Assembly (NCBI RefSeq): GCF_002234535.1
Contig: NZ_CP022521.1
Coordinates: 2,294,001-2,358,000, forward strand
Reading direction: 5' to 3'
Source: Actinoalloteichus hoggarensis
GTDB lineage: Bacteria > Actinomycetota > Actinomycetes > Mycobacteriales > Pseudonocardiaceae
DNA length: 64,000 nucleotides
Shown in pieces: positions 9,920 through 55,583 of the stretch (positions are counted from its first letter, which is position 1; the number at the start of each line of letters is the position of its first letter). The notes beneath the pieces were generated by a model that saw only the letters and a program-made list of their open reading frames with translations, did no database searches and was not told the DNA's origin. The translations under genes and the position numbers were made by a program.

Positions 9920-11083
9920 ATGACTTCGAGCGAAGGACGACGCAAGCGCGCACTGGTCATCGGCTGTGGCATCGCGGGACCGGTGGTGGCCCTCTACCTG
10001 AAGAAGGCGGGCTTCGACCCGGTCGTACACGAGCGGCGGGCCGCCGACGCCGCCGACGACGGCGGCTCCTTCAACCTGGCGCCCAACGGACTCTCGGTGC
10101 TGCGGACCCTCGGCCTGGCCGACAAGGTCGTCGCCATCGGCCAGGCGACCGAGCGCACCGAGTTCCTCAACCATCGGGGCAGGCGGCTGGCGCTGCTGTC
10201 CGAGTCCACGGTGCTGCTGCACCGAGGCGAACTGCATCGCCTGCTGGTCGCGGAGGTGGAGGCGCAGGGCATTCCCACGACCTTCGGTCATGAGGTGACC
10301 GAGGTCGAGACGACGGACGACGGCGTCCGGGTCCGTTTCGGGGACGGCACCGAGGATCACGGCGATCTGCTGGTCGGCGCCGACGGCATCCGGTCCAGGG
10401 TGCGCCACGCGGTGGTCAAGGGCCTCCCGCAGCCGCGTTACACGGAGATGATCGACTCCGGCGGCGTCGGCTACCTGCCGGGGCTCAAGGCCGACGGCAC
10501 CATGCGGATGACGTTCGGGCTGAAGGGGTTCTTCGGTTACCAGGTCCTGCCCGACGGTCACGTCTTCTGGTTCCAGAACTATCACCAGGCCGACGAGCCC
10601 AGCAGGCATCGACTGCGCGGCATCCCCAACGCCGTCTGGCGCGAGCATCTGATGGAGATGCATCAGGGCGACCGCTCTCCCATCGTGGACATCATCGCGT
10701 CCACCGACGAGATCGACCGCTACCTGCTGTTCGACGCGCCCACCCTGTCGCGGTGGCACACCGACCGCATCGTCCTGCTCGGCGACGCGGCCCACGCGAT
10801 GGGGCCGCACACCGGTCAGGGAGCGTCGATGGCTCTGGAGGACGCGATCGTGCTGGCGCGGAGTCTGCGTGACGCGACCAGCATCCCGGCGGCGTTCGCG
10901 GACTACGAGCGTGTCCGCAGGCCGAGGGTGGACCACGTGATCGAGCAGACCCGACACAACGGCAACTCCAAGGCGGCGCCCGGCCCGATCGGCCGGGTCG
11001 TGCGCGATCTCGTCCTACCGGTCTTCCTCAAGGCGGGCGTGAAGAAGGGCGCCGCGCTGTACACCCACCGGATCCCCTGGTGA
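9920..11083 (+). CDS. FAD-dependent aromatic monooxygenase (PHBH-fold, ~390-residue class)
   Basis: 387 residues. FAD-binding GCGIAG at residues 15-20, the DG motif LLVGADGIRSRVR, and the GD motif LLGDAAHAMGPHTGQG near residue 288. It belongs to the short class of flavin monooxygenases and is a clear paralogue of the gene at 54384 (shared GxGxAGP start, APNG, LKGFFGYQV/LNGFFGYQV, and RDLVLPFFLK-type C-terminus). In xantholipin-type pathways an enzyme of this general class performs the Baeyer-Villiger-like xanthone-forming step; which paralogue, if either, does so here is inference. Flanked by a promoter with a perfect TATAAT. Confidence 0.9.
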   Translation: MTSSEGRRKRALVIGCGIAGPVVALYLKKAGFDPVVHERRAADAADDGGSFNLAPNGLSVLRTLGLADKVVAIGQATERTEFLNHRGRRLALLSESTVLLHRGELHRLLVAEVEAQGIPTTFGHEVTEVETTDDGVRVRFGDGTEDHGDLLVGADGIRSRVRHAVVKGLPQPRYTEMIDSGGVGYLPGLKADGTMRMTFGLKGFFGYQVLPDGHVFWFQNYHQADEPSRHRLRGIPNAVWREHLMEMHQGDRSPIVDIIASTDEIDRYLLFDAPTLSRWHTDRIVLLGDAAHAMGPHTGQGASMALEDAIVLARSLRDATSIPAAFADYERVRRPRVDHVIEQTRHNGNSKAAPGPIGRVVRDLVLPVFLKAGVKKGAALYTHRIPW

Positions 11084-11473
11084 GACTCGTGTGCTGACCG
11101 TCGTCGAGACGCCCGACGGCGGCCGATCGAACCGGGCGCGTCACGGATGAGGCAGACGAATTCGCTCGGTTCGGGACATAGGGTCTCGGGAGAGCGCGGG
11201 TCCTCGGGCGGCGGCCGAACGCGTCACTGCCGCCGTACCTGGTACGAGCCGCCGTCTCGCTGTCCTTCGGCGCGGCTTCAGTCACCGAACGGACTAGTCG
11301 ATCGACGGCGCTGGATTACCCGGTATGTAGTAATCTGCGCTCGGTCTGCCCGGACGCCGGGTGAGATCGAACTGACGAGGTGCGCCCGAGCGCGACGCCC
11401 GCGCCGGGGCAGCGGCGATGACGGCGGGCGGCCCGACGAGAGTCGCCCGGTCTACAGGAGATCGGAGTAGCCG
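11084..11473. other. Intergenic region before DUF6220 gene, with inverted repeat
   Basis: 390 bp without a supported gene. It contains an imperfect operator-like element at 11314-11335 with GATTAC / GTAATC half-sites 10 bp apart in an AT-rich patch, possibly a promoter or operator for the two-gene unit downstream. A weak 6-bp hairpin follows the upstream stop codon (11098-11119). Confidence 0.35.
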
Positions 11474-11938
11474 ATGGCGAACCGGGTGGAACCGGACTCG
11501 GCCGACATGACCACCACGACACCGGACAGGCGGCGTGGACTGCGCCTCGTGATCGCCCTGACCATCCGGGTGCTCGTGGTCCTGTACTTCTTGAGCACCT
11601 TCCTGCAGGCCGTGTTGGCCGGACTCTTCGTCACCGGCGACGTCGGCATGCTCGCGATGCACGAGATCAACGCGCACACCAACCTCTTCCTCGTCTTCCT
11701 GCTGATCATCGCGGCCGTGCTGCTGCGTTGGCCGGTCGGCGGGCCCGGCTGGCCGATCATCGCCTTCGTGCTGCTCGCCGTCCTGGTGTTCACCCAGACG
11801 GAGATGGGCTTCATGCGCGTCGTCGACCTGCACATCCCGACGGGCGTGCTGCTGTTCGGAATCTCCGTCGCACTGCTCATCTGGGCGTTCGGCAAGAGCT
11901 TCGACGTGTCACGGCGGACCGCGAGGAGGCGGGGATGA
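11474..11938 (+). CDS. Four-helix membrane protein (DUF6220-like)
   Basis: 154 residues with a charged N-terminal tail (~25 residues) and four predicted membrane helices (about 26-50, 60-78, 85-105, 112-132). Histidines lie within or near helices (MHEINAH and DLHIP), which could bind heme as in small b-type cytochromes, but no family of known function is certain. Its stop codon overlaps the start of the multicopper oxidase gene (ATGA), so the two are translationally coupled. They may form a membrane redox pair; this is inference from coupling. Confidence 0.7.
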   Translation: MANRVEPDSADMTTTTPDRRRGLRLVIALTIRVLVVLYFLSTFLQAVLAGLFVTGDVGMLAMHEINAHTNLFLVFLLIIAAVLLRWPVGGPGWPIIAFVLLAVLVFTQTEMGFMRVVDLHIPTGVLLFGISVALLIWAFGKSFDVSRRTARRRG

Positions 11939-13521
11939 ACCGTCGATCCGGTCCCGCGGTCTCGCGTCGCGGCTTCCTGGCCCTGACGGGCGGGCTCGGC
12001 CTGGTCGTCCTCGGTGGCAGCGGCTGCGCGAGCGTGTTCGGCGAGAACGCCGGGGCACTGCTGCGCAGCGACCTCCCGCTGCCCGAGCCCTTCCGGGTCG
12101 GGCTGCCGATTCCGGCGATCGCCGAGCCGGTGCGCAGCGAGGACGGCACCGACTATTACGAACTGGTGCAACGCGCGGCGGCGCAGGAGATCGTGCCGGG
12201 CACCACGACCACGATCTGGGGCTTCGACGGGACGTTCCCCGGCCCGACCTTCCGGGTCCGCGCCGGGCAGCGCTCGGTGGTGACCCTGCGCAACGAGCTG
12301 CCCGTGCCGACGTCGACTCATCTGCACGGGGGCGTGACGCCGCCGGACTCCGACGGCTACGCCACCGACCTCGTCGTGCCCGCGGACTACCCGCACGATC
12401 CGCGGCGGCACTCACACGACGTGATGCAGGTGCCGCCGGAGGCCTGGACGCTCCACGAGGAGGTCAAGGAGCACGAGTATCCGCTGGAGCAGCGGGCCGC
12501 GACCCTCTGGTACCACGACCACCGGATGGACTTCAGCGCCCCGCAGGTGTGGCGGGGCCTCCTGGGCGCCTTCCTGCTGCACGACGACGAGGAGGACGCG
12601 CTGGGCCTCCCCTCGGGCGACAAGGACGTCCCGCTGCTGATCTGCGACCGGGCCTTCGGCGCCGACGGCGAGTTCAAGTACCCGTCGCTGGACGCGACGC
12701 TGACCAGCGTCCCCGGCGTCGAGCCCGACTATCACTCCGGGGTGCAGGGCGACGTCGTCCTGGTCAATGGAGCGCCGTGGCCGGTGCTGGAGGTGGCGAA
12801 CACGAAGTACCGCTTCCGGCTCGTCAACGCCTCCAACGCGCGCCGCTACCGGTTCGGGCTCTCGCCCGCGCCGGAGAACGGCCCGGCGTTCGTGCAGATC
12901 GGCACGGACCAGGGGCTGCTGGCCGCGCCCGTGGATCGCGACGAGTTCGACGCCGCCCCGGCGGAGCGCTTCGACGTCGTGATCGACTTCTCCGCCTACC
13001 CGGTCGGCACCCAGGTGGTCCTGGAGAACCTCCTCGGCGAGGAGGGCACCCGACAGGTCATGCGGTTCGACGTGGTCCGCGAGGAGGCCGACGAGACGGA
13101 GATCCCCGAACGCCTCTCGGAGATCGAACGGCTCACCAGGGACGAGGCCGTCGCCGAACGGGACTTCGACTTCCGGCTCACCACGGTCAACGGCCACCAG
13201 ACGTGGACGATCAACGGCGAGCCCTTCGACCCGATGAGCAACATGGCGACCCCGGCACTGGACACCGTCGAGCTGTGGCGGTTCACCAGCGACTTCCACC
13301 ATCCCGTCCACATTCACCTCGCTCACTTCCAGGTCCTCACTCGCAACGGCGCCGAGCCGGAGCCCGCCGAGCAGGGCTGGAAGGACACGGTCGACGTCCG
13401 GCCGTACGAGGTGCTGGAGGTCTTGGTGCGCTTCAGCGGCTTCCGGGGCCGGTACCTGGTGCACTGCCACAACCTCGAGCACGAGGACATGGCCATGATG
13501 GTCAACTTCGAGGTGGTCTGA
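11935..13521 (+). CDS. Multicopper oxidase, Tat-exported lipoprotein (CotA/bilirubin oxidase-like)
   Basis: 528 residues. The N-terminus has a twin-arginine motif SRRGF, a hydrophobic stretch and a lipobox-like GGSGCAS, so the protein is probably exported folded and lipid-anchored outside the membrane. All copper ligands are visible: HLH (~129-131), HDH (~194-196), HPVHIH (~456-461) and HCHNLEHEDM (~510-519) with the type 1 Met. Such laccase-like enzymes oxidise phenols and couple aryl radicals. ATG 11935 overlaps the upstream stop. An extracytoplasmic phenol oxidase is uncommon in type II PKS clusters; late quinone formation or dimerisation of the exported product are possibilities. Confidence 0.9.
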   Translation: MNRRSGPAVSRRGFLALTGGLGLVVLGGSGCASVFGENAGALLRSDLPLPEPFRVGLPIPAIAEPVRSEDGTDYYELVQRAAAQEIVPGTTTTIWGFDGTFPGPTFRVRAGQRSVVTLRNELPVPTSTHLHGGVTPPDSDGYATDLVVPADYPHDPRRHSHDVMQVPPEAWTLHEEVKEHEYPLEQRAATLWYHDHRMDFSAPQVWRGLLGAFLLHDDEEDALGLPSGDKDVPLLICDRAFGADGEFKYPSLDATLTSVPGVEPDYHSGVQGDVVLVNGAPWPVLEVANTKYRFRLVNASNARRYRFGLSPAPENGPAFVQIGTDQGLLAAPVDRDEFDAAPAERFDVVIDFSAYPVGTQVVLENLLGEEGTRQVMRFDVVREEADETEIPERLSEIERLTRDEAVAERDFDFRLTTVNGHQTWTINGEPFDPMSNMATPALDTVELWRFTSDFHHPVHIHLAHFQVLTRNGAEPEPAEQGWKDTVDVRPYEVLEVLVRFSGFRGRYLVHCHNLEHEDMAMMVNFEVV

Positions 13522-13941: not shown

Positions 13942-15357
13942 ATGCGTGCTGCGACCCAGATCCTTGTCATCGGAGGTGGGCCCGGCGGGTCCACCGCCGC
14001 GGGACTGCTTGCCCAACAGGGTTTCCAGGTCACGTTGTTAGAGCGTGACCGGTTCCCGCGTTACCACATCGGCGAGTCGATCCTGCCGTCGTGCAAACCG
14101 ATCTTCGAACTGCTCGGGGTCTGGGACAAGGTCGACCAGCACGGCTTCCAGCCCAAGGGCGGCGCCTACTTCCTCTGGGGGCCCGAGGAGTGGGAGGTCG
14201 TCTTCAACGATCTCGGCAGCGACGGGACCAACGCCTTCCAGGTGATCCGCTCCGAGTTCGACGAGCTGCTGCTCAACCATGCCCGCGAACTGGGCGTCGA
14301 GGTCGTCGAGGGCACCTCGGTGAAGGAGCTGCACTTCGAGGACGGTAGACCGGTCGCGGCCACCTGGGCCGAGACGAAGAACGCCGACGTGTCCGGGCGG
14401 ATCTCCTTCGACTACCTCGTCGACGCCTCGGGCCGAGGCGGGGTGATGGCGACGAAGTACCTGAAGTCGCGGCGCTTCCACGACGTGTTCCGCAATGTCG
14501 CGGCCTGGTCGTACTGGAAGGGAGCGAAGCGGCTGGACCGGGGTTCCGAGGGCTCGATCGTGGTGGCCTCCGTCCCGGACGGCTGGTTCTGGGCGATCCC
14601 GCTGCACGACGGGACCATGAGCGTCGGCCTGGTGACCGGGCGCGACGACTTCAACCGGCGCCGCAACGAGCTGGGCAGCATCGAGGCGGTGTACCGGCAG
14701 TCGCTGGAGCAGTGCCCCGGCGTGCTCGGCCTGCTCTCCGACGCGGAGAAGGTCAGCGAGATGAAGGTGGAGCAGGACTACTCCTACGCCGCCGAATCCT
14801 TCCAGGGCCCCGGCTATCTGCTCGTCGGCGACGCGGCCTGCTTCCTCGACCCCTTGTTGTCCACGGGCGTTCATCTGGCCACCTACAGCGCCATGCTCGG
14901 CGCGGCGAGCATCGGCAGCGTGCTGCGTGGCGAGACGACCGAGGCCGAGGCGTGGGGCTTCTTCGACACCGTCTACCGCCAGGCCTACGAGCGGATGCTC
15001 GTGCTGGTCTCGGTCTTCTACGACAGCTACAAGGGCAAGGAGCACCACTTCTACAACGCGCAGCGGCTGTCCAGCAAGGACCACCAGGAGTTGAACATCC
15101 AGGCGGCTTTCGATCGGATCATCACCGGGATCGAGGACATGGACGACGCCCAGTCGGTCTACCGGAAGGTGCACGAGCACCTGACCGGCGCGGAGAGCGG
15201 GAACCCCAACCCACTGGCGAACCTGAACAAGGTTCATGAGCAGAAGAAGGCGCCCATGCACGCCGGGAACGCCGTCGACGGACTCTACCTGTCGTTCCGC
15301 CCGCAGCTCGGCCTCCAGCGCACCTCGGCGGCGACGCCGTCGGTGAACCAGGCCTGA
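13942..15357 (+). CDS. FAD-dependent halogenase
   Basis: 471 residues. FAD site GGGPGGS near residue 11; the halogenase-defining WFWAIP motif (WxWxIP) at ~215-220; PKGG with Lys72 at the position of the proposed catalytic lysine. The RFPRYHIGES segment and C-terminal region are typical of halogenases acting on phenols or carrier-bound aromatics rather than tryptophan. A flavin reductase would be needed in trans; none is adjacent. ATG 13942 is preceded by GGAG/GGAGAC. First gene of a seven-gene plus-strand operon. It predicts a chlorinated (or brominated) product. Confidence 0.93.
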   Translation: MRAATQILVIGGGPGGSTAAGLLAQQGFQVTLLERDRFPRYHIGESILPSCKPIFELLGVWDKVDQHGFQPKGGAYFLWGPEEWEVVFNDLGSDGTNAFQVIRSEFDELLLNHARELGVEVVEGTSVKELHFEDGRPVAATWAETKNADVSGRISFDYLVDASGRGGVMATKYLKSRRFHDVFRNVAAWSYWKGAKRLDRGSEGSIVVASVPDGWFWAIPLHDGTMSVGLVTGRDDFNRRRNELGSIEAVYRQSLEQCPGVLGLLSDAEKVSEMKVEQDYSYAAESFQGPGYLLVGDAACFLDPLLSTGVHLATYSAMLGAASIGSVLRGETTEAEAWGFFDTVYRQAYERMLVLVSVFYDSYKGKEHHFYNAQRLSSKDHQELNIQAAFDRIITGIEDMDDAQSVYRKVHEHLTGAESGNPNPLANLNKVHEQKKAPMHAGNAVDGLYLSFRPQLGLQRTSAATPSVNQA

Positions 15358-15393: not shown

Positions 15394-16926
15394 ATGAGTT
15401 CCGCGACACGGGAGTCCTCGGCGGAGTCCGGCCCGACCCGAGCTCTGCCCCGCTGGTATCTGACTCTCTTCTCCACCGACGCCCTGGAGCGCTTCGGCTT
15501 CTTCGGCATGCAGGCGATCCTCGTGCTCTATGCCTCGGCGCCGCGTTCGGAGGGCGGGTTGGGCCTGCCGATCGGCGAGTCCGCCGCGTTGTTCGGCGCC
15601 TGGATCGGCTTGATGTTCATGCTGTCGCACCCCGGAGGCTGGGTCGGCGACCGAGTCCTCGGCCAGCGTCCCACCCTGGTGCTGTCCTCCTTCCTCGGCA
15701 TGACGGCGTATCTCCTCCTCGCCGTGCCCGCGGGCTGGAGCACGGCGGTCGGCCTGAGCATCCTGGCGATCTCCGGCGGCCTCTTCAAGCCGAACCACCA
15801 GGGCATGATCAACCTGATGTACCCGGACGCCAGACGTCGGGAGTCGGGCATCTCCCTGATGTACGTCGGCATCCAGGTCAGCGCGCTGCTGGCCCCACTG
15901 GTCACCGGCTACCTCGGGGAACGGGTGAACTGGGGGCTCGGCTTCTCCGTAGCCGCGCTCTCCATGTTCCTGTGCGGACTCCAGATCGCCCTGAGCGGCA
16001 GGCAGTTCGGCGGCGTCGGCGCCGGCCCGAGTCGACCGCTCGATCAGCAGGAGCGCACCAGGGCGCTGCGGATCGTCCTGAGCCTGGCGGGCACCATCAC
16101 CGCCCTGCTGCTGGGACTCTGGGCGTCGGGCCTGCTCAGCCTGATGGTCGTGATCGCGATCGCCGGGATCAGCGCCGTGATCGCGCCGATCTTCGGCTAC
16201 ACCCTGCTCTACCGGAACAAGGAGCTGGGCGGCGGCGACCGACGGCGGCTGCGGGCCTTCCTGGGCGTCTTCCTCGGCGCGACGCTGTTCTGGATGATGA
16301 ACGCCCATGCATCGTCGCTGCTGAACCTCTTCGCCCGAGACCACACCGACCGGGTCATCCTCGGCTGGGAGATCCCGGCCAGCTGGCTCCAGTCGGCGAC
16401 CCCGATGTTCATCCTCGTCCTGGCGCCGGTCATCGCCATGTCGATGCCCCGGATCGGCGGGAAGAACAACCTCGCGGTGAAGTTCTCCATCGGCCTGGTC
16501 CTGATGGGCGGCAGCTTCCTGCTGATGTCGGTCGCGACGACCCTGGCCGCCGACGGCACGCTCGTCTCGCCGATGTGGCTGCTGATCGTCTACCTCGCCC
16601 ACGCCTGCGGTGAGGTCGTGGTCGCCGCCGTGACCATCGCCGCCGCCGCGGACGTGCTGCCCCGGCAGTACACCTCCCGCGTCCTCGGCCTGCTCTGGTT
16701 GTTCGCGGGCATGGGCGGCGGCTTAGGCAGCGGGGTCGTGCAGCTCGCGACCGTCATGCCCGAACCGCTCTACTACCTGATGCTCGGTTCCGTCGCCACC
16801 TCGGTCGGCCTGTTCTTCGCGCTGCGGCGACGGGCGCTGACCAGGGCGTTGGGCCCGGATGGGCCTGACGAGAGCGGCCCGGGAAGGGTCGAAGAGCCCC
16901 CGGCCCCGATCGCCTCCGCCCCCTGA
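15394..16926 (+). CDS. POT/PTR-family proton-coupled transporter
   Basis: 510 residues, multi-pass membrane protein (about 12-14 helices). The N-terminal DALERFGFFGMQAILVLY matches the POT ExxERFxYY-type motif, and GLFKPNHQGMINLMYP matches the second family signature. POT carriers import di- and tripeptides with protons, but members in antibiotic clusters are often assumed to move the product. It starts 36 bp after the halogenase stop with a good GGAG site. The C-terminal tail is Pro/Gly-rich and probably cytoplasmic. Confidence 0.88.
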   Translation: MSSATRESSAESGPTRALPRWYLTLFSTDALERFGFFGMQAILVLYASAPRSEGGLGLPIGESAALFGAWIGLMFMLSHPGGWVGDRVLGQRPTLVLSSFLGMTAYLLLAVPAGWSTAVGLSILAISGGLFKPNHQGMINLMYPDARRRESGISLMYVGIQVSALLAPLVTGYLGERVNWGLGFSVAALSMFLCGLQIALSGRQFGGVGAGPSRPLDQQERTRALRIVLSLAGTITALLLGLWASGLLSLMVVIAIAGISAVIAPIFGYTLLYRNKELGGGDRRRLRAFLGVFLGATLFWMMNAHASSLLNLFARDHTDRVILGWEIPASWLQSATPMFILVLAPVIAMSMPRIGGKNNLAVKFSIGLVLMGGSFLLMSVATTLAADGTLVSPMWLLIVYLAHACGEVVVAAVTIAAAADVLPRQYTSRVLGLLWLFAGMGGGLGSGVVQLATVMPEPLYYLMLGSVATSVGLFFALRRRALTRALGPDGPDESGPGRVEEPPAPIASAP

Positions 16927-17047: not shown

Positions 17048-17785
17048 GTGGATCAAGGACTGTCCGGCAGGAAGGTCGTCGTCACCGGCGGCACGCGAGG
17101 AATCGGACGCGCGACCGTCCTGGCCTTCGCCCGGGAGGGCGCCCAGCTGATCATCGTCCATCGCAGCCCCGGAGAGGCCGCGGAAGACCTCGGCAGAGAG
17201 CTGAAGGAGCGCGGCGTCACCCACCGGCTCGTTCAGGCCGACGTCACGGTGGCCGCCGACGTGGAACAGCTCGCCGAGGCGGTGCGCGAGACCTTCGGCA
17301 CGGTCGACGTCCTGGTCAACAACGTCGGCGTCGACGGGGCCGTGCCCTTCGGCGAACTGGCGGAGGACGAGTGGCGTCGGGTGCTGGAGCACAACGTCAC
17401 CGCCGCCTACCTGGTGACGCACGCCCTGCACGATCTGCTCGCCGACGGCGCCTCGGTGATCGGCATCGGCTCGTCGGTCGCGCTGCGCGGTCGCTCCGCG
17501 GGCGTGCACTACACGGCCTCCAAGGCCGCGCTGATCGGTTTCACCCGTGCGTTGTGCAAGGAACTCGGCCCGAGGGGTATCCGGGTCAACGTGGTCGCCC
17601 CCGGTCTCACCGAGACGACCGAGGGCGCCGGGCTGCCGCCGCAGGCGGTCGAGCGCATCGTCGGAATGACGGCGCTGGGCCGGATCTGCCAGCCCGACGA
17701 CGTAGCGGGTGCCGTGATCTTCCTGGCAGGCGACACGTCCCGCTACATCACCGGAGCGACCCTGAACGTGGATGGAGGAGTCTGA
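17048..17785 (+). CDS. SDR family ketoreductase-like enzyme (FabG type)
   Basis: 245 residues. TGGTRGIG cofactor motif (~13-20), NNVG in place of NNAG, catalytic Tyr155 and Lys159 in YTASK, and the C-terminal ITGATLNVDGG typical of FabG-like SDRs. GTG 17048 is chosen because AGAGGA is 6 bp upstream; an ATG 15 bp earlier overlaps that site. Its stop overlaps the next start (TGATG). Likely reduces a polyketide keto group or quinone. A paralogue sits in the core operon at 48376, also coupled to a small alpha/beta-barrel protein. Confidence 0.88.
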   Translation: MDQGLSGRKVVVTGGTRGIGRATVLAFAREGAQLIIVHRSPGEAAEDLGRELKERGVTHRLVQADVTVAADVEQLAEAVRETFGTVDVLVNNVGVDGAVPFGELAEDEWRRVLEHNVTAAYLVTHALHDLLADGASVIGIGSSVALRGRSAGVHYTASKAALIGFTRALCKELGPRGIRVNVVAPGLTETTEGAGLPPQAVERIVGMTALGRICQPDDVAGAVIFLAGDTSRYITGATLNVDGGV

Positions 17786-18165: not shown

Positions 18166-18170
18166 GCGCC

Positions 18171-43741: not shown

Positions 43742-44077
43742 GTGCATCGCACTCTGATCGTCGCCAAGCTCAAGACCGACGATCCCGCTCATATCGCAGA
43801 GGTGTTCGCCGAATCGGACGCGACCGACCTTCCCAGGATGGTCGGGGTGTCCAGACGCACCCTCTTCAACTTCCACGACCTCTACTTCCATCTGGTCGAG
43901 GCGGATCAGGACATCCAGCCAGACCTTTACCGGGCGCGGTCGCACCCCCTCTATCAGGACATCAACACCCGGCTCACCGAGTTCGTGTCGCCCTACGACC
44001 CGAACTGGAAGGAACCGAGGGACGCGATGGCCTCGCCGTTCTACGTCTGGACTTCTGAGCAGGGGAGGATCGCATGA
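43742..44077 (+). CDS. TcmI-family polyketide cyclase
   Basis: 111 residues, the usual length. [30 protein letters not shown] and PFYVWTSE are TcmI-family signatures of this dimeric ferredoxin-like cyclase, which closes later rings of tetracenomycin- and pentangular-type polyketides. GTG 43742 is preceded by CAGGAGGCCGACC. First gene of the core operon; its stop overlaps the cupin start (ATGA). Confidence 0.93.
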
Positions 44078-47115: not shown

Positions 47116-47848
<733 letters not shown>

Positions 47849-48338: not shown

Positions 48339-48375
48339 CCACGTCGATCTTCGCGTACACCACGAGAGGAACATG

Positions 48376-49128
48376 ATGGACCTCAATCTCAAGGGCAAGA
48401 AGGCACTGGTGACCGGTGGCACCCGTGGCGTCGGTCGAGGGGTGGTGCTGGCGCTGGCGAAGGCCGGTGTCGACGTGGTCACCTGCCACCGCCAGGAGAG
48501 CGAGGCGGTCGCCTCCCTCGAACGGGAGCTCAAGGAGATCGGCGGCAACCACCGCGTCGTGCTGGCCGACCTCGCCGAGCCCACCCAGATCGCCGAGCTG
48601 CTGGACGAGGCGGGCAAGCACCTCGGGCATCTCGACCTGGTCGTGAACAACGCGGGCGCGATCAGCCACGTCCCCTACGGCGACCTGGACCTCGCCGAAT
48701 GGCGCCGGGTCATCGACACCAACCTCACGGCGTCGCACCTGGTCATCCAGCACGCGCTGCCGCTGCTGAGCGAGGGCGCCTCGGTGATCAGCATCGGCTC
48801 GAAGTCCTCCGAGGTGGGCATCCCCCTGCGGGCGCACTACACGGCGACCAAGGCGGCGCTGCGCGGGCTGAGCCGATCGCTGGCCAAGGAGTTCGGCAAG
48901 AAGGGCTATCGCTTCAACGTCCTGGCACTCGGCGTCATCGAGACCGAGGCACTGCATGCGATGCCCGCCGAGCAGCGCGAGCTGATGGTGCAGCGGTACA
49001 GCGACAAGACCGCCCTCGGCAGGCTCGGCAAGCCCGAGGAGGTCGCGGGGGCAGTCCTCTGGCTGGCAAGCGACCTGTCCCGTTACGTCACCGGCGCCAC
49101 GATCCACGTCGACGGAGGAATCTCCTGA
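48376..49128 (+). CDS. SDR family ketoreductase-like enzyme in core operon
   Basis: 250 residues. TGGTRGVG near residue 12, NNAGAISHV, catalytic YTATK, and [11 protein letters not shown]-type C-terminus (here [11 protein letters not shown]). ATG 48376 is chosen because AGAGGA is 5 bp upstream; the ATG one codon earlier is too close. Similar to the SDR at 17048, including the coupling of its stop to a small alpha/beta-barrel gene (TGATG). In pradimicin-type pathways an SDR here acts as polyketide ketoreductase. Confidence 0.9.
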
Positions 49129-49475
49129 TGTCTGAGTCCACTTTTCGCGTGATGCTTCGGATGCAGATCAAGCCCGGCATGGAGCAGGACTTCGAGCGAG
49201 TCTGGCTCGAGGTCGGGGACTCCGTCACCTCGCATCCCGCCAACCTCGGCCAATGGCTGTCGCGCAGCGACGAGGAGGGCGTCTACTACATCGTCAGCGA
49301 CTGGGTCAGCGAGCCGCGTTTCCGTGAGTTCGAGACCAGCGACCGTCACCTTCAGCACCGGCAGCAACTGCATCCCTACCGGTCCGGAGGCTCCATGACC
49401 ACCATGCACGTCGTGGCCCACCTGGTGGGCGAGGGCGCCGATGTGACACATCGGGAGTGGGAGGCCGCTCGATGA
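49128..49475 (+). CDS. Antibiotic biosynthesis monooxygenase (ABM) 1
   Basis: 115 residues, ferredoxin-like alpha/beta fold. FRVMLRMQIKPGMEQDFERVW and GVYYIVSDWVSEPRFREFE match ABM/PdmH-like cofactor-free monooxygenases that oxidise anthrones to quinones. Start overlaps the SDR stop (TGATG) and its own stop overlaps the next gene (ATGA). In pradimicin biosynthesis such an enzyme works in a complex with cyclases. Confidence 0.87.
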   Translation: MSESTFRVMLRMQIKPGMEQDFERVWLEVGDSVTSHPANLGQWLSRSDEEGVYYIVSDWVSEPRFREFETSDRHLQHRQQLHPYRSGGSMTTMHVVAHLVGEGADVTHREWEAAR

Positions 49476-49774
49476 CAGGGGAGGTGCGGGTCCTCGTCTA
49501 TCACGCAGCCGAGGACCCCGCCGCCATCGAGGAGGCCTATCACCAGGCGAGCAACCGACTTCAGGGCGTTCCCGGACTCCGCGGCAACGAGCTGCTGCGG
49601 TCCGTGCACGACCAGAACGGGTTCGTGGTGGCCAGCTCCTGGGAGAGCCTGGAGGCGTTCCAGGCCTGGGAGCAGGGCGCGACGCATCGAGACAGCACCG
49701 CGCCGCTGCGGCCCTTCCGCGACACCCGACTGCCGGTGCCCTTCGCGATCTATCAGGTGGCGGCGGCGTACTAG
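49472..49774 (+). CDS. Antibiotic biosynthesis monooxygenase (ABM) 2
   Basis: 100 residues. VRVLVYHAAEDPAAIEEAYHQAS, GLRGNELLRSVHDQNGFVVASSWESLEAFQAWE are typical ABM-domain features. ATG 49472 overlaps the stop of ABM 1; an ATG five codons earlier is less likely. Probable partner of ABM 1 in quinone formation. Sequence similarity between the two is low, so they are not a recent duplication. Confidence 0.87.
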   Translation: MTGEVRVLVYHAAEDPAAIEEAYHQASNRLQGVPGLRGNELLRSVHDQNGFVVASSWESLEAFQAWEQGATHRDSTAPLRPFRDTRLPVPFAIYQVAAAY

Positions 49775-49817: not shown

Positions 49818-51533
49818 ATGACCAGCACCTGGAAGCAGACGACCCGTGCGGCCTCGACGGCCGGGACGGAGTCCGACTGGTTCCACTGCCGAGGCTGTCA
49901 CACGTTGATCTACCGCAGGCGCTTCGACAGACTGGGCCAGGTCTGCCCGGAGTGCGGGCGACACGGCCCGCTCACCGCCCGGCAACGGATCGACCAGCTC
50001 TTCGACGTCGGAACGGTGAAACCCGTCGACCTCCCGGCCACGGTCGACGATCCCCTCACCTTCACCGACCTGGTGCCCTATTCGCAGCGGCTGGCCACCG
50101 CGCGGCGAGACACCGGCCTCGACGACGCGGTGACGGTGGTACACGCCAGTCTGCGGGGGCATCAGGTCGTCGCGGCGATCATGGACTTCCGCTTCCTCGG
50201 CGGAAGCCTGGGCACGGCGGCGGGTGAGGCGATCACCCGTGCCGCCGAGACCGCCCTCGAACAGGGGTGCCCTCTCCTGCTGATCACCGCCTCCGGCGGC
50301 GCCCGCATGCAGGAGGGGGCACTGTCGTTGATGCAGATGGCCAAGACGAGCAACGCCATCGCGGCGCTGGGCGAGGCGGGGCTGCTGACCATCAGCCTGA
50401 TCACCGACCCGACCTACGGCGGCGTGGCGGCGTCCTTCGCCACCCTCTCGGATCTCATCATCGCCGAGCCGGGCGCGCGGATGGGTTTCGCCGGGCCACG
50501 CGTGATCGAGCAGACGATCAGGCAGCGTCTCCCGGAGGGGTTCCAGACGGCCGAGTTCCTCCGATCGCACGGTCTCATCGATGACGTCCGCCCACGCTCC
50601 GAACTGCCGCACGTCTTGGACGTGCTGCTCTCGAGCAGCACGCCGGTCGCGGCCGACTGGGGAGCCGAGCACGTCGACCCGGTCACGACCGACGTCGACC
50701 GGCTGGCGGGCCGGGAGATCGGCGCGCTCGTCGCCACCGCACGCCACCTGCGGCGGCCGACGACCCTCGATCACATGGCGTACTGGATGGACGGATTCAT
50801 CGAGCTCCACGGCGATCGGCGGGGCGCGGACTGCCCGGCCGTCGTCGGCGGCATCGGGCTGCTGGAGGGCCTGCCCGTCGTGGTCATCGGACACCAGAAG
50901 GGCCACACCACGGCCGAGATGGTGCGCCGAGGCTTCGGGATGCCCTCGCCCGCCGGCTATCGCAAGGCGATCCGGCTCATGCGGCTCGCGGCCAGGATGG
51001 GTGTCCCGGTGGTCACGCTCGTGGACACCCCTGGCGCGGACCCCGGCCTGGCGGCCGAGGAGAACAACCAGGCCGGGGCCATCGCCGAGTGCCTCCGGGT
51101 GATCGGCGGCCTGCCCGTCCCCGTGGTCAGCGTGATCACGGGAGAGGGCGGCAGCGGCGGTGCGATCGCCCTCGCCGCGGGCGACCGGGTGCTGCTCAGC
51201 GAGAACGCCATCTATTCGGTGATCAGCCCCGAAGGCTGCGCCGCGATCCTCTGGAAGAGCCCGGAGGCCGCCTCGACGGCGGCGGCCGCCCTCTGGCTCG
51301 ACGCCGCGTCGCTGCTGCGTCTCGGCGTCGTCGACGGGGTCGTCCCCGAGCCGCCGGGCGGGGCCCACCACGACCCGGCCGCCGCGGCGGAGACCGTGCG
51401 GGACGCGGTGATCTGTGCGGTACGCGAGCTGCGCGGACGGGACGGCGCCGAGCTCGTCGCCGAGCGGCGACGGAGGTTCCGGCGCTTCGGAGTCGCCTCG
51501 GCGGCCAACGACGTGAAGGAGATCCGGAAATGA
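49818..51533 (+). CDS. Acetyl-CoA carboxylase carboxyltransferase, fused beta-alpha subunits
   Basis: 571 residues. N-terminal AccD-like part with a zinc ribbon (CRGC ... CPEC, residues ~24-47) and GGARMQEGALSLMQM; C-terminal AccA-like part (from ~300) with LVDTPGADPG and GEGGSGGAIALA. The fusion of beta and alpha subunits is a compact single-chain transferase often found in aromatic PKS clusters. It transfers carboxyl from biotin to acetyl-CoA to give malonyl-CoA extender. Stop overlaps the BCCP start (ATGA). Confidence 0.93.
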   Translation: MTSTWKQTTRAASTAGTESDWFHCRGCHTLIYRRRFDRLGQVCPECGRHGPLTARQRIDQLFDVGTVKPVDLPATVDDPLTFTDLVPYSQRLATARRDTGLDDAVTVVHASLRGHQVVAAIMDFRFLGGSLGTAAGEAITRAAETALEQGCPLLLITASGGARMQEGALSLMQMAKTSNAIAALGEAGLLTISLITDPTYGGVAASFATLSDLIIAEPGARMGFAGPRVIEQTIRQRLPEGFQTAEFLRSHGLIDDVRPRSELPHVLDVLLSSSTPVAADWGAEHVDPVTTDVDRLAGREIGALVATARHLRRPTTLDHMAYWMDGFIELHGDRRGADCPAVVGGIGLLEGLPVVVIGHQKGHTTAEMVRRGFGMPSPAGYRKAIRLMRLAARMGVPVVTLVDTPGADPGLAAEENNQAGAIAECLRVIGGLPVPVVSVITGEGGSGGAIALAAGDRVLLSENAIYSVISPEGCAAILWKSPEAASTAAAALWLDAASLLRLGVVDGVVPEPPGGAHHDPAAAAETVRDAVICAVRELRGRDGAELVAERRRRFRRFGVASAANDVKEIRK

Positions 51534-52078
51534 CCGGCGTAGAGGTCCACCCGCCGAGGAACGGACAGTCGCTCGGCGACGAGAGCCCGATGGACCGGGC
51601 GGTGGCCGCGCTCGGAGCCCAGGACGCGCTGGAGCTCCTGTGCCGCAGCGTGTCCGACGTCGTGCGCACGACCCCGCAGCACCCGATGCGGGTCAACGTC
51701 CGCTTCGGCTGTGCCAGTGTCGAGGTCGAGTGGCCGGGCGCGGGCTCGGCTCCCGCCGAGGGCGGCACAGCACCGGCGGCCTCGGCCCCCGTCGCGCCCA
51801 CGCAGGCCGTCGAGCCCGACGGCGTCGAGCGGCCGGCCGTCTGCGCGCCGCTGGTGGGCACCTTCTATCGAGCCGAGGAGCCCGGCGCCCGACCCTTCGT
51901 CGAGGTCGGCGACGTCGTCGAGCCGGGCCAGCAGGTCGGGATCATGGAGGCGATGAAGCTCATGAACCCGATCCTCACCGAACATCGCGGACGGGTCGTC
52001 GAGGTGGTCGTCGCCGACGGCCAGCCGGTGGAGTACGGCCAGGCCCTGGTGCTCCTGGAGCACTTGGAGGAGGAGTGA
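51530..52078 (+). CDS. Biotin carboxyl carrier protein of acetyl-CoA carboxylase
   Basis: 182 residues. Biotinyl domain at the C-terminus with Lys143 in MEAMKLMN; Ala/Pro/Val-rich linker (~70-105) before it; N-terminal part is helical. It shuttles carboxylated biotin between the biotin carboxylase and the fused transferase encoded on either side. Confidence 0.94.
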   Translation: MTGVEVHPPRNGQSLGDESPMDRAVAALGAQDALELLCRSVSDVVRTTPQHPMRVNVRFGCASVEVEWPGAGSAPAEGGTAPAASAPVAPTQAVEPDGVERPAVCAPLVGTFYRAEEPGARPFVEVGDVVEPGQQVGIMEAMKLMNPILTEHRGRVVEVVVADGQPVEYGQALVLLEHLEEE

Positions 52079-52083
52079 GCAGC

Positions 52084-53502
52084 ATGCCGGACCCGGTTCG
52101 AGAGGTCGCGACGCAGGACAGACCGTTCGACACCGTCCTGATCGCGAACCGGGGGGAGATCGCGCTGCGGGTGGTGCGGACCTGCCGCGAGATGGGCATC
52201 CGATCGGTGGTGGTGCACTCCACGGCGGATCGGGACTCCGCCGCCGTGCTGGCCGCGGACGAGTCGGTGCAGATCGGGCCTGCCGCGCCCAAGCGGAGCT
52301 ACCTGTTCGCCCCGGCGATCATCGAGGCGGCGCTGCAGACGGGGGCGCAGGCGGTGCATCCGGGTTACGGGTTTCTTTCCGAGGACCCGGACTTCGCGGA
52401 GATCTGTGCGCGTAACGACCTGGTCTTCGTCGGCCCGCGACCCGAGGTCGTGTCCCGACTCGGGGACAAGGCGCTGGCCCGATCCCTGATGTCCGACGCG
52501 GGACTGCCGGTGCTGCCCGGCACGATCGAGCCGGTGCGCAGCGCAGGCGAGGTGGTCGAGGAGGCGAACCGGATCGGCCTGCCGCTGATCATCAAGGCGG
52601 CGGCGGGCGGCGGCGGCCGCGGCATGGCGGTGGTGCGGGAGTGGGCGGAGCTGCTGCCGACCTACCGGACGACCAGGGCGGCGGCCCGGGCGGTGTTCGG
52701 CGACGAGCGGGTCTACCTCGAACGCTTCTGGGAGAAGGCCAGGCACGTCGAGGTGCAGATCATCGCCGACGAGCACGGCAACGTGGTGCATCTGGGGGAG
52801 CGGGACTGCTCGGTGCAGCGCAGGCACCAGAAGCTCGTCGAGGAGAGTCCGGCGCCGGGGCTCAGCCGGGATCTGGCTCGCAGGCTCGCCGAGCACGCCG
52901 TGCGGGGAGCGCGTGCCGCCGGGTACACCGGCGCCGGGACCTTCGAGTTCCTGGTGGACGGTGACGAGGCGGCTTTCATCGAGGTCAACTGCCGTATCCA
53001 GGTCGAACATCCGGTGACAGAGGCGGTGACCGGCATCGACCTCGTCCGCGAGCAGCTGCGGGTGGCCGCGGGGATGCCGTTGTCGTTCGCCCAGGACGAC
53101 GTGGAGCTGCGCGGCGTCGCGGTGGAGTGCCGGGTCAACGCCGAGGACCCGGCCCGCGACTTCGCCCCCTGTCCCGGTGAGCTGAGCGAGTTCGTCCCGC
53201 CGGGCGGCCAGTTCGTCCGGGTCGACACCGGGGCCTACCCGGGGTGGCGCGTTCCGCCGGACTACGACTCGCTGCTCGCGAAGGTGATCGCCTGGGCACC
53301 GGATCGGCCGCAGGCGTTGGCCAGGATGGATCGAGCGCTGCAGGAGTTCCGCATCCGGGGTCGCGGGGTGCACACGACCAAGGAGCTGCTCCGTGAGGTC
53401 CTGGTCCATCCGAGCTTTCAGCGTGCCGAGCACACGACGTCGTTCCTGGACGAGGAGCAGTCGGCGTCGACGGAGGCCGCGGTGCACGACCGGGCGAGCT
53501 GA
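52084..53502 (+). CDS. Biotin carboxylase subunit of acetyl-CoA carboxylase
   Basis: 472 residues. LIANRGEIALRVVRT start, ATP-grasp loop KAAAGGGGRGM (~175), EVNCRIQVEHPVTE and the C-terminal domain (VNAEDP). In family members MNTRIQVEH is usual, here VNCRIQVEH. ATG 52084 has GGAGGAG upstream spanning the previous stop. Last gene of the core operon. Together with the preceding two genes it gives the cluster its own malonyl-CoA supply. Confidence 0.95.
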   Translation: MPDPVREVATQDRPFDTVLIANRGEIALRVVRTCREMGIRSVVVHSTADRDSAAVLAADESVQIGPAAPKRSYLFAPAIIEAALQTGAQAVHPGYGFLSEDPDFAEICARNDLVFVGPRPEVVSRLGDKALARSLMSDAGLPVLPGTIEPVRSAGEVVEEANRIGLPLIIKAAAGGGGRGMAVVREWAELLPTYRTTRAAARAVFGDERVYLERFWEKARHVEVQIIADEHGNVVHLGERDCSVQRRHQKLVEESPAPGLSRDLARRLAEHAVRGARAAGYTGAGTFEFLVDGDEAAFIEVNCRIQVEHPVTEAVTGIDLVREQLRVAAGMPLSFAQDDVELRGVAVECRVNAEDPARDFAPCPGELSEFVPPGGQFVRVDTGAYPGWRVPPDYDSLLAKVIAWAPDRPQALARMDRALQEFRIRGRGVHTTKELLREVLVHPSFQRAEHTTSFLDEEQSASTEAAVHDRAS

Positions 53503-53569: not shown

Positions 53570-54190
53570 TCACCGGATACGGCGTGCCGCGTGCAGCTCC
53601 CGCCATTCCTCCACACCGTCGAGCGACTGGCTGCTGATGTCCTGGAGCAGGCCGCGGACCCACGTCAGCTCGGTCTCCTTCAGGGCGAGCTGGTATTCGT
53701 CCTCCACCAGGAAGAGCCGGGGCAGCGGCGCGCGGTCCTTGTCGCCTTCGCTGCTGAGCCGCAGCTCTTCGCGATCGCGCTCGACCTCCTTCTCCAGCCG
53801 GTGTGCCCGCAGCGCGAGCTGGGCGGCCACGTCGTCGGGGGAGAGCGCCGTCATGAAGGTGAGGCCCGCCGCGAGCAGCGTGTACTCCTTCATGGGAGTG
53901 CTGAGCAGTTCCCGGAGACGCTGTGCCAGTTCTTCGCGACCGTCCTCGGTGATCTCGTAGATCGTCCGTTCCGGCCGGTTGCCCTGCCTGCCGGTGCTCT
54001 GCACGTCGATCAGCTGGGACTTGCGCAGCGTCTCCACCGCGTTGTACAGCGAGCCAAAGTTGATCTTCACTGCGGAGTCGTGATGCTGATCCCGCATGGT
54101 GGTGGCCATCTCGTAGGGATGCATCGGCCGCTGAGCGAGACAGGCCAACACTGCCAGCGTCAACGGGCTGGACGCCCGTCGCTTCGCCAT
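53570..54190 (-). CDS. PadR family transcriptional repressor
   Basis: 206 residues. N-terminal winged helix (LAVLACLAQRPMHPYEMATTMRD, INFGSLYNAVETLRKSQLID, GNRPERTIYEITEDG) followed by a long helical C-terminal domain (class 1 PadR). GGAGGTCCCCC precedes the ATG, and a -10-like TATATT (54219-54224) is on the same strand. Divergent from the FAD monooxygenase at 54384, whose promoter carries two palindromes, so it probably controls that gene and itself. Convergent with the core operon with only 67 bp between stops. Confidence 0.92.
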   Translation of the reverse strand: MAKRRASSPLTLAVLACLAQRPMHPYEMATTMRDQHHDSAVKINFGSLYNAVETLRKSQLIDVQSTGRQGNRPERTIYEITEDGREELAQRLRELLSTPMKEYTLLAAGLTFMTALSPDDVAAQLALRAHRLEKEVERDREELRLSSEGDKDRAPLPRLFLVEDEYQLALKETELTWVRGLLQDISSQSLDGVEEWRELHAARRIR

Positions 54191-54318: not shown

Positions 54319-54376
54319 AATGACGTCATTGATGACACTATTCGCTGTTGACTGGGCCGAGTGCTTTAATTAAAGT
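54319..54376 (+). promoter_or_regulatory. Palindromic, probably leaderless promoter of FAD monooxygenase
   Basis: -35 TTGACT (54348-54353), 17-bp spacer, -10 TAAAGT (54371-54376). Transcription should begin at about the ATG (54384), implying a leaderless mRNA; no ribosome site is present. Two perfect 12-bp palindromes occur: AATGACGTCATT (54319-54330) and CTTTAATTAAAG (54364-54375), the latter covering the -10. Likely PadR operators. Confidence 0.6.
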
Positions 54377-54383
54377 ATTTGAT

Positions 54384-55583
54384 ATGGCTAGCGAGACGAG
54401 TTCTGCGCGTAAGCGGGCTATGATCATCGGTTGCGGTGTCGCGGGTCCGGTATTGGCGATGTTCCTTCAGCGAGCCGGCATCGAGGCCGTCGTCTACGAA
54501 GGGCGACCCGAGGCGCGCGACGAGGTCGGCGCTTTCCTGGGAATAGCACCCAACGGTCGAGACGTGCTCGAGACACTGGGAATTCGGGAGGAGGTCGAGG
54601 CCGTCGGCATCCCCAGTCCGAGGATCGCCTTCCTGAATCACAAGGCCCGGGTCCTCGGCCGGAATCCCCAGCCGGTGGTCACCCTCAAGAGAGGCATGCT
54701 CACCAAGGCCGTCCGGGAGGCGGCCGAGCGTCGAGGCATCCAGATCGAGTGGAACAAGCGGTTGGTGGACCTGTCCGAGACCGATCGGGACACCGTCATC
54801 GCGCGGTTCGCCGACGGAAGCTCCGCGGAGGCGGACTTCCTCGTGGGCTGCGACGGAATCCACTCCGAGGTACGGCGGCGGATCCTGCCCGAGGCGCCGC
54901 TGCCCACGTTCACCGGCACGGTCGGCACCGGCGCCTACACTCGCGTTCCCGGCCTCGCCTCGACCGAGGGCACCATGTACATGACCTTCTGCCTCAACGG
55001 TTTCTTCGGCTACCAGGTGACGGACTCCGGCGAGGTGTGCTGGTTCGAGAACTTCCACCAGAAGACCGAGCCCAGCGCGGCCGAGCTGGCGGGGATCTCC
55101 GACGAGTCCTGGCAGCGGAGGCTGCTCGAACTGCATCGGCGCGACCACGACCCGATCCCCGCGATCATCGCGGCGAAGCAGGAGACGATGGTCCGGTACA
55201 CGGTCTCGGAGATGCCGGTGCTGCCCACCTGGCACCGAGGCCGCGTCTGCCTGCTCGGCGACTCGGCCCATGCGATGGGGCCGCACTCGGGACAGGGCGG
55301 CTCGATGGCCCTGGAGGACTGCATCGTGCTGGCCAAGTGCCTGCGCGACATCCCGGACCTCTCCCGGGCCTTCGCGACCTACCAGTCCATCCGCAAGGAG
55401 CGGGTGGAGCACGTCGTCAAGGAGACCCGACGCAACGGCGACCGGAAGGCTCCGCCCGGGTTCTTCGGCAGGATCGGCCGCGACCTCGTGCTGCCCTTCT
55501 TTCTCAAGAACGGCGTCGACCTGTTCACCGAGATCTACCAGCACCACATCGAGTGGGACGAGAAGGTGCTCGTCAACAGCTGA
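54384..55583 (+). CDS. FAD-dependent aromatic monooxygenase, ~400-residue class (paralogue)
   Basis: 399 residues. GCGVAG near residue 15, DG motif LVGCDGIHSEVR, GD motif CLLGDSAHAMGPHSGQGGS. Paralogue of the protein at 9920 with the same C-terminal RDLVLPFFLKNG segment. The start lies at the predicted transcription start. This short flavin monooxygenase class includes candidates for oxidative ring cleavage/rearrangement in xanthone pathways. Control by a dedicated PadR repressor is unusual for a biosynthetic gene and could mean an inducible, ligand-gated step. Confidence 0.9.
   Translation: MASETSSARKRAMIIGCGVAGPVLAMFLQRAGIEAVVYEGRPEARDEVGAFLGIAPNGRDVLETLGIREEVEAVGIPSPRIAFLNHKARVLGRNPQPVVTLKRGMLTKAVREAAERRGIQIEWNKRLVDLSETDRDTVIARFADGSSAEADFLVGCDGIHSEVRRRILPEAPLPTFTGTVGTGAYTRVPGLASTEGTMYMTFCLNGFFGYQVTDSGEVCWFENFHQKTEPSAAELAGISDESWQRRLLELHRRDHDPIPAIIAAKQETMVRYTVSEMPVLPTWHRGRVCLLGDSAHAMGPHSGQGGSMALEDCIVLAKCLRDIPDLSRAFATYQSIRKERVEHVVKETRRNGDRKAPPGFFGRIGRDLVLPFFLKNGVDLFTEIYQHHIEWDEKVLVNS

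What the first reader, a model, noticed from the sequence alone, without database searches (positions are those of the whole stretch)
9920..55583. Gene set predicts a chlorinated, amidated, methylated and perhaps glycosylated pentangular polyketide
TcmI-like, cupin and monodomain aromatase cyclases with ABM monooxygenases indicate pentangular folding. An AsnB amidotransferase, FAD halogenase, two O-methyltransferases, a P450, four flavin monooxygenases and a glycosyltransferase are all present. The halogenase + amidotransferase + short FAD monooxygenase combination recalls xantholipin/lysolipin/kibdelone-type xanthones, but the MCO, TenA-like and F420-type genes go beyond the genes I recall for those.
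Basis: partly seen in the sequence, partly recalled or inferred. Interest (0 to 1): 0.8.

Follow-up and report, generated by a model that had tools for sequence, protein, structure and literature searches.

The report
Known chlorinated xanthone antibiotic cluster

Summary
The gene set is real: Pfam confirms a type II PKS island with halogenase, AsnB, two O-methyltransferases, four FAD monooxygenases, MCO, TenA-like, LLM and glycosyltransferase genes; only the P450 (6721-7932) lies outside the stated span. The prediction is largely right but not new. I count 43 genes from 6721 to 55583; 43 of 43 have a counterpart (59-98% aa, 38 of 43 at 85% or more) in the same order between yebC and ruvC in a genome whose length, 7,120,854 bp, equals that published for Actinoalloteichus fjordicus. 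Its 43-gene cluster was reported in 2025 for MBL-AB01, C27H18ClNO10: Cl, amide, two OMe, COOH, no sugar. The window's genome (6,606,717 bp) fits A. hoggarensis, listed in 2017 as carrying a type II PKS 'xanthone' cluster. Less expected: the third genome (size of A. hymeniacidonis) keeps 17 of the 43 genes at the same site and lacks 26, including halogenase, xanthone-forming oxygenase, AsnB and both methyltransferases, against its 'xanthone +' entry. Open: the roles of an apparently exported MCO and of an intact glycosyltransferase.

The parts
2029..4128 (+). SARP1: BTAD/NB-ARC transcriptional activator, outside the published cluster boundary
   Evidence: Pfam BTAD 1.1e-44; G001 87%, G002 66%
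4058..5998 (-). SARP2: BTAD/NB-ARC activator, likely pathway regulator
   Evidence: Pfam BTAD 7.9e-48; G001 94%, G002 86%; 46-55% homologues in other pentangular loci L002-L004, L007, G213
6721..7932 (-). Cytochrome P450 (RS10920 position, XanO2 homologue)
   Evidence: Pfam p450 2e-27; G001 94%
8070..9005 (-). SDR oxidoreductase (RS10925 position)
   Evidence: Pfam adh_short; G001 84%
9920..11083 (+). FAD monooxygenase FMO1 (RS10930 position, XanO3 homologue)
   Evidence: FAD_binding_3 1.5e-29; G001 93%
11474..11938 (+). Small membrane protein, DUF6220 below cut-off; overlaps MCO start by 4 nt
   Evidence: G001 92%
11935..13521 (+). Multicopper oxidase with twin-arginine and lipobox-like N-terminus (probably exported, CotA-like)
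   Evidence: Cu-oxidase domains; CotA laccase best solved relatives; motifs; G001 95%, omega 0.079
13942..15357 (+). FAD-dependent halogenase (RS10945 position)
   Evidence: Trp_halogenase 5.5e-35; RadH and CmlS among best solved relatives; G001 96%
15394..16926 (+). POT/PTR2-family transporter
   Evidence: G001 91%, G002 69%
17048..17785 (+). SDR ketoreductase (RS10955 position)
   Evidence: G001 97%, G002 77%
17785..18165 (+). SchA/CurD-like protein 1
   Evidence: PF04486 4.8e-50; G001 98%, G002 79%
18171..19133 (+). Hydroxyisobutyrate-dehydrogenase-like oxidoreductase (RS10965 position, XanS1 homologue)
   Evidence: G001 85%, G002 79%
19193..20050 (+). LLM/F420-type oxidoreductase (RS10970 position, XanZ1 homologue)
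   Evidence: Bac_luciferase 4.2e-39; G001 94%
20047..20502 (+). Anthrone-oxygenase-like protein 1 (RS10975 position)
   Evidence: PF08592 2.2e-12; G001 94%, G002 77%
21479..22894 (-). Na+/H+ exchanger family transporter
   Evidence: G001 86%, G002 72%
23065..24096 (-). O-methyltransferase 1 (RS10985 position, XanM2-like)
   Evidence: PF00891 5e-30; G001 94%
24283..25908 (-). FAD monooxygenase FMO2, the xanthone-forming Baeyer-Villiger type (RS10990 position)
   Evidence: best solved relatives RubL and GrhO5; G001 97% over residues 1-516, 95% over 1-538; omega 0.053
26169..27176 (+). O-methyltransferase 2 (RS10995 position, XanM3-like)
   Evidence: PF00891 1.2e-36; G001 98%
27484..29082 (+). 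FAD monooxygenase FMO3 (RS11000 position, XanO5 homologue)
   Evidence: G001 90%
29426..30061 (-). MEMB: membrane protein (RS11005 position, called ABC permease in print), fast-evolving
   Evidence: no Pfam family; G001 59%, omega 0.68
30207..32357 (-). GMC oxidoreductase (start uncertain)
   Evidence: G001 86%; no match in the 80 CLF-neighbour loci
32685..33095 (-). Dabb alpha/beta-barrel protein
   Evidence: PF07876; G001 79%, omega 0.52
33170..34024 (-). NmrA-like NAD(P)-binding protein
   Evidence: G001 86%
34137..35507 (-). MFS exporter (RS11025 position)
   Evidence: MFS_1 2.7e-47; G001 75%
36961..37353 (-). SchA/CurD-like protein 2 (RS11035 position, XanT homologue)
   Evidence: PF04486 4e-49; G001 94%, G002 83%
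37543..38208 (-). TenA/PqqC-like protein
   Evidence: PF03070 1.3e-17; G001 93%; also in L035, L041, G213, G221
38377..40221 (-). AsnB-type amide synthetase (RS11045 position)
   Evidence: Asn_synthase 4.4e-84; Cys2; G001 92%
40270..41439 (-). Glycosyltransferase, both domains present (likely start 41439)
   Evidence: EryCIII-like N and C domains; upstream start seen; G001 87%, omega 0.24
41746..42429 (+). SDR oxidoreductase (RS11055 position, XanS2 homologue)
   Evidence: G001 89%
42643..43434 (+). Protein with PPDK_N similarity below cut-off
   Evidence: G001 74%, where the frame ends a few codons earlier
43742..44077 (+). TcmI-type cyclase
   Evidence: PF04673 6.5e-42; G001 98%, G002 87%
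44074..44502 (+). Cupin cyclase
   Evidence: PF07883; G001 91%, G002 81%
44499..45767 (+). Ketosynthase alpha
   Evidence: ketoacyl-synt 2.4e-49; CTSG; G001 96%, G002 91%
45817..47058 (+). Chain-length factor
   Evidence: ketoacyl-synt 4.2e-31; NEQAG; G001 95%, G002 85%
47116..47376 (+). Acyl carrier protein
   Evidence: PF00550; G001 98%, G002 91%
47381..47848 (+). Monodomain aromatase/cyclase
   Evidence: PF03364; G001 95%, G002 84%
47877..48338 (+). Anthrone-oxygenase-like protein 2 (RS11095 position)
   Evidence: PF08592; G001 93%; in G002 only a 36% cross-hit on protein 1
48373..49128 (+). Ketoreductase
   Evidence: G001 98%, G002 82%
49161..49774 (+). Two ABM monooxygenases (49161-49475, 49472-49774)
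   Evidence: PF03992; G001 97% and 95%, G002 81% and 79%
49818..53502 (+). Acetyl-CoA carboxylase set: carboxyltransferase, BCCP, biotin carboxylase
   Evidence: Pfam; G001 95%, 87%, 93%
53570..54190 (-). PadR regulator
   Evidence: PF03551; G001 95%, G002 86%
54348..55583 (+). FAD monooxygenase FMO4 (RS11135 position, XanO3 homologue)
   Evidence: G001 94%

Best explanation
The island is the Actinoalloteichus polycyclic-xanthone cluster, the orthologue of the A. fjordicus MBL-AB01 cluster, in a genome that fits A. hoggarensis. A dedicated acetyl-CoA carboxylase set supplies malonyl-CoA; KS alpha, CLF and ACP build a chain from 13 malonyl units; ketoreductases and three cyclases fold it to a pentangular core; ABM, anthrone-oxygenase-like and SchA/CurD proteins oxidise it; a first methylation is followed by Baeyer-Villiger-type conversion by FMO2 to the xanthone; AsnB forms the cyclic amide; the halogenase chlorinates; a second methylation and late oxidation of a methyl to a carboxylic acid finish it; MFS and other transporters export it. 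Shown here: gene content, order, intact motifs, 43 of 43 orthology. Published for the orthologue: formula and structure of the compound, and a pathway proposed by homology to xantholipin. Inferred: that this species makes MBL-AB01 or a very close congener, and each enzyme-step assignment.
For: Pfam gene content. 43 of 43 genes from P450 to FMO4 matched in order in G001, nt blocks 74-91%. G001 length 7,120,854 bp equals that published for A. fjordicus DSM 46855T. The 31 cluster locus tags named in the passages read, counted in steps of five from KS alpha = RS11075, fall on genes whose type does not conflict with the printed role; one (RS11005, 'ABC transporter permease') is supported by position only, and one tag number (RS11030) falls in a gap where I found no credible ORF. 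MBL-AB01 = C27H18ClNO10, one N, Cl on the ring shared with xantholipin, two OCH3, COOH. Between the two species omega is 0.2 or less for 35 of the 42 genes with a value.
Against: No metabolite data for this species. The MBL-AB01 cluster assignment rests on homology and on being the only type II PKS cluster found, not on gene inactivation, in the sections read. The block MEMB-MFS diverges faster (omega 0.19-0.68), so a late step or transport could differ. I had no xan or llp protein sequences, so XanO4, XanA and XanH kinship is taken from the paper.
Confidence: 0.93

Rival explanations
1. The cluster makes a glycosylated xanthone (arixanthomycin or FD-594 type), with the glycosyltransferase at 40270-41439 adding a sugar from general metabolism.
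For: The GT has both EryCIII-like domains, is constrained (omega 0.24), and GT homologues of 49-59% recur in related loci L001, L007, G213, G221.
Against: MBL-AB01 from the orthologous cluster has 27 carbons and no sugar in its structure; no sugar-nucleotide genes among the proteins scanned; the albofungin cluster also carries two GTs although albofungin lacks a sugar.
Confidence: 0.12
2. The cluster makes a chlorinated pentangular polyketide that is not a xanthone (for example fasamycin- or benastatin-like).
For: The core cyclase and ABM set is shared by many pentangular loci; FMO2's best named solved relatives are the rubromycin-type enzymes RubL and GrhO5, and I could not compare it with XanO4 directly.
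Against: FMO2 is 95-97% identical to the gene at the position of the one the MBL-AB01 paper calls the Baeyer-Villiger monooxygenase, and the product assigned to that cluster is a xanthone.
Confidence: 0.03
3. The span holds two merged pathways, one being the fast-evolving block 29.4-35.5 kb (MEMB, GMC, Dabb, NmrA, MFS).
For: MEMB, GMC and Dabb have no match in the 80 CLF-neighbour loci and the block has higher omega (0.19-0.68).
Against: The block keeps its place in G001 and is missing together with the other tailoring genes in G002; the MBL-AB01 paper counts RS11005 and RS11025 as likely transport genes of the pathway.
Confidence: 0.15

Closest known systems
MBL-AB01 cluster, Actinoalloteichus fjordicus ADI127-7 / MP127-IG17 (UA74_RS10920-RS11135)
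   Same: 43 of 43 genes, same order, same yebC-ruvC site; halogenase 96%, AsnB 92%, FMO2 97%, CLF 95%
   Different: A few genes diverge more (MEMB 59%, 42643 ORF 74%, MFS 75%, Dabb 79%, SDR1 84%); product in this species untested
Xantholipin cluster (BGC0000279)
   Same: By the published comparison 37 of the 43 MBL-AB01 genes have similar function
   Different: MBL-AB01 has no methylenedioxy bridge although a XanO2-type P450 is present, its cluster has two methyltransferases rather than three, and it carries a carboxylic acid; no direct sequence comparison made here
Lysolipin cluster (BGC0000242)
   Same: 32 of 43 genes of similar function by the published comparison
   Different: not compared directly here
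Clusters in unnamed Pseudonocardiaceae G213 and G221
   Same: Halogenase 76% and 73%, AsnB 51% and 68%, TenA-like, GT, OMTs, FMO2 75% and 69%, and the pentangular core
   Different: Gene order reshuffled; no MCO, GMC, Dabb or MEMB hit in the 100 kb examined of each; products unknown to me

Membership tests
Polycyclic xanthone (xantholipin/lysolipin-type) cluster | Type II minimal PKS with TcmI-like, cupin and monodomain cyclases and ABM oxygenases | tested here: met
   homologues in pentangular loci
Polycyclic xanthone (xantholipin/lysolipin-type) cluster | XanO4-type Baeyer-Villiger monooxygenase | tested here: inconclusive
   FMO2 is 95-97% identical to the A. fjordicus gene at the position of the one named as the BVMO; XanO4 itself was not available for comparison, and no activity can be tested
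Polycyclic xanthone (xantholipin/lysolipin-type) cluster | AsnB-type amide synthetase and FAD halogenase | tested here: met
Polycyclic xanthone (xantholipin/lysolipin-type) cluster | Xanthone product with cyclic amide | not testable with these tools
   shown in print for the orthologue's product
MBL-AB01 cluster | Same 43 genes in same order | tested here: met
   43 of 43; published gene table itself not seen, only tags and roles in the text
MBL-AB01 cluster | Production of C27H18ClNO10 | not testable with these tools
   no product of this cluster named in the passages I read of three (PMC5676828, PMC5168871, PMC6963827) of the 8 papers that name A. hoggarensis; MBL-AB01 occurs in one held paper, which does not name A. 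hoggarensis
Glycosylated xanthones (arixanthomycin, FD-594) | Deoxysugar biosynthesis genes in the cluster | tested here: not met
   no sugar-nucleotide genes recognised among the proteins scanned; genes elsewhere in the genome not searched

The most novel reading that the evidence does not exclude
The multicopper oxidase is an exported, Tat-type lipoprotein laccase that oxidises the hydroquinone ring of the released xanthone to its quinone outside the cell, so the antibiotic leaves in a reduced form and is activated (or matured) extracytoplasmically, with the conserved glycosyltransferase as an internal safeguard.
Probability: 0.15. Interest if true: 0.5.

Novelty: already known. Interest (0 to 1): 0.25.

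Why it matters
It shows that a sequence-only prediction of chemistry (Cl, amide, methyls, xanthone-type pentangular core) was right, and gives a second species in which the MBL-AB01 pathway can be studied. The three-species comparison is the useful part: this genome keeps the full set, one is the published producer, and one keeps only 17 of 43 genes at the same site, without signs of decay. That helps separate core from tailoring genes, points to two SARP regulators left outside the published boundary, and suggests that A. hymeniacidonis makes a simpler, still unknown pentangular compound rather than a xanthone.

Tried and rejected
Considered a kibdelone-type or wholly new compound: dropped once the MBL-AB01 paper and the G001 alignment were seen. 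Considered the TenA-like and LLM genes as novel features: dropped. Looked for a gene at 35.5-36.9 kb (expected tag RS11030): no credible ORF in the window or in G001 by my codon score; two frames there gave no Pfam match. ORFs 11147-11470, 20528-21478, 35779-36060, 36101-37009 and 55718-56383 gave no Pfam match at E 0.01 and look non-coding. Tested whether G002 has the missing enzymes elsewhere, for four of the 26: no halogenase match at E 1e-20, best FMO2 relative 41%, best AsnB relative 36%, best OMT2 relative 34%; the other 22 were sought only in the 77 kb fetched around its cluster. The G147 halogenase (69%) sits in a region where only weak KS/CLF cross-hits (32-36%) were found, so this halogenase family is not specific to the pathway. 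A paper search for multicopper oxidase or laccase with type II polyketide, pentangular or xanthone terms listed 15 of 23 papers; from titles and abstract starts none describes such a role in a bacterial pentangular pathway.


Full report
What is there. A codon-usage gene call and Pfam scans of 60 translated ORFs (59 distinct genes or frames, the glycosyltransferase twice with different starts) give one contiguous type II polyketide island between yebC (438-1190) and ruvC (57870-58865), both confirmed by Pfam. Every class in the finding is present. The one slip is that the P450 (6721-7932) lies outside the stated span, so the cluster starts earlier; two SARP-type activators at 2029-5998 adjoin it.

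Whose genome. The window is 2294001-2358000 of a single 6,606,717-bp contig. A paper (PMC5676828, passages) gives 6607 kbp for A. hoggarensis DSM 45943T, 7,120,854 bp for A. fjordicus DSM 46855T and 6306 kbp for A. hymeniacidonis. The two congeners held here have contigs of 7,120,854 (G001) and 6,306,207 bp (G002). The names are inferred from these lengths. The same paper's Table 5 lists a type II PKS cluster with putative product 'xanthone' in A. fjordicus and marks it + in A. hoggarensis and A. hymeniacidonis.

The match that settles it. A 2025 paper (PMC12838262; I read the abstract, sections 8 and 9, part 1 of 2 of section 11, and found passages) reports MBL-AB01 from A. fjordicus and a 43-gene cluster UA74_RS10920-RS11135. 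I count 43 genes from P450 to FMO4, leaving out a non-coding-looking ORF at 11147. All 43 have a match in the same order at the same site in G001, with local identities of 59-98%, 38 of 43 at 85% or more; the five below are SDR1 84%, Dabb 79%, MFS 75%, the 42643 ORF 74% and MEMB 59%. The 31 cluster tags named in the text fit the window's order. MBL-AB01 is C27H18ClNO10 with one N, Cl, two OCH3 and a carboxylic acid, and no sugar. So chlorinated, amidated and methylated are supported; glycosylated is not.

How it most likely works. By the published comparison with xantholipin (review PMC9327801, section 9): malonyl supply by the carboxylase set, chain from 13 malonyl units, cyclases and ketoreductases, oxidation by ABM, anthrone-oxygenase-like and XanT-like proteins, methylation, BVMO-type xanthone formation, amide formation by AsnB, chlorination, second methylation. 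The late hydroxylation and methyl-to-acid steps are unassigned in print. The P450 is a XanO2 homologue although MBL-AB01 has no methylenedioxy bridge; I think it a good candidate for the methyl oxidation (inference; the paper suggests hydroxylation of other carbons).

Distribution. Of 390 genomes of the family, 23 (G000 and G001 among them) have a halogenase match at E 1e-130 or better; of the other 21 I examined three, and two (G213, G221) have halogenase, AsnB, TenA-like, GT and pentangular core together while one (G147) does not. A 2026 paper reports 193 xantholipin/lysolipin-like clusters in GenBank (PMC13200232, passages). The kind is therefore common.

The stripped sister. G002 keeps SARP1, SARP2 and 17 of the 43 genes in the same order at the same yebC-ruvC site: POT transporter, SDR2, both SchA/CurD, HIBADH-like, anthrone-oxygenase-like 1, exchanger, TcmI, cupin, KS alpha, CLF, ACP, cyclase, ketoreductase, both ABM, PadR. 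It lacks 26, in seven separate blocks. The 17 show omega 0.085-0.300 against the window and no internal stops in the aligned parts; for comparison yebC is 0.051 and ruvC 0.164, so they look in use, though less constrained than yebC. These omega values are simple pairwise estimates at dS 0.4-1.5. No halogenase and no close FMO2, AsnB or OMT2 relative was found in that whole genome. By the known route it cannot make a xanthone, which argues against the 2017 table entry. Loss rather than gain is favoured because several tailoring genes in G213 and G221 are about as divergent from the window as the core genes (halogenase 73-76%, FMO2 69-75%, CLF 68-76%), but others are more divergent (AsnB 51% in G213, OMT1-like 26-50%) and transfer is not excluded.

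The site. YebC was sought in 40 family genomes and found in 39; among the 29 other loci held (1.5 kb of flank each) 10 have ruvC within that flank; the other 19 cannot be judged. This is consistent with insertion of the cluster between two normally close genes.

What stays open. The MCO has twin-arginine and lipobox-like features and four copper motifs, CotA-type solved relatives, 95% identity and omega 0.079 to G001, yet no close homologue in the 80 loci: a conserved, probably exported oxidase to which I can assign no step. MCO homologues of 31-38% with a twin-arginine-like start occur in some Streptomyces pentangular loci, so the theme may be wider. The GT is intact and constrained although no sugar is reported. 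The words multicopper and glycosyltransferase do not occur in the held main text of the MBL-AB01 paper; its supplement was not open to me.

Noticed in passing
G002 (A. hymeniacidonis-size genome) C1 about 4,065,000-4,086,000: Reduced version of the cluster at the same site with 17 of 43 genes, without halogenase, AsnB, xanthone-forming oxygenase or methyltransferases; a 273-aa methyltransferase-like ORF (by eye) beside ruvC is not seen in the window.
   Followed up: partly
window 2029-5998: Two convergent, slightly overlapping SARP-type regulators conserved in all three Actinoalloteichus genomes but outside the published 43-gene boundary.
   Followed up: partly
window 56413-57567: Two glyoxalase-family proteins between FMO4 and ruvC, present in G001 (92-93%) and absent from the G002 region fetched; possible resistance proteins of the cluster.
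   Followed up: no
window 57870-58865: RuvC has a low-complexity C-terminal tail of roughly 140 residues beyond the Pfam domain that differs strongly among the three species.
   Followed up: partly
window 60864-63854: YajC is followed directly by RelA; secD and secF, which I recall as usually lying between them, are not there. SecD_SecF_C matches lie elsewhere, the best two within one 798-aa frame near 2.72 Mb of the genome.
   Followed up: partly
window 29426-35507: Block of MEMB, GMC, Dabb, NmrA and MFS genes evolves faster (omega 0.19-0.68) than most of the cluster.
   Followed up: partly
G147 C1 about 6,499,634: A 68-69% halogenase relative recurs in seven genomes of one genus (g10), each with one TGA in the aligned stretch; the one copy examined lies without the pentangular core genes.
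   Followed up: partly
PMC12838262, introduction: The paper calls xanthobaccin A from A. hymeniacidonis a macrolactam xanthone; I recall xanthobaccin as a polycyclic tetramate macrolactam, so this is probably no evidence for a xanthone in that species.
   Followed up: no
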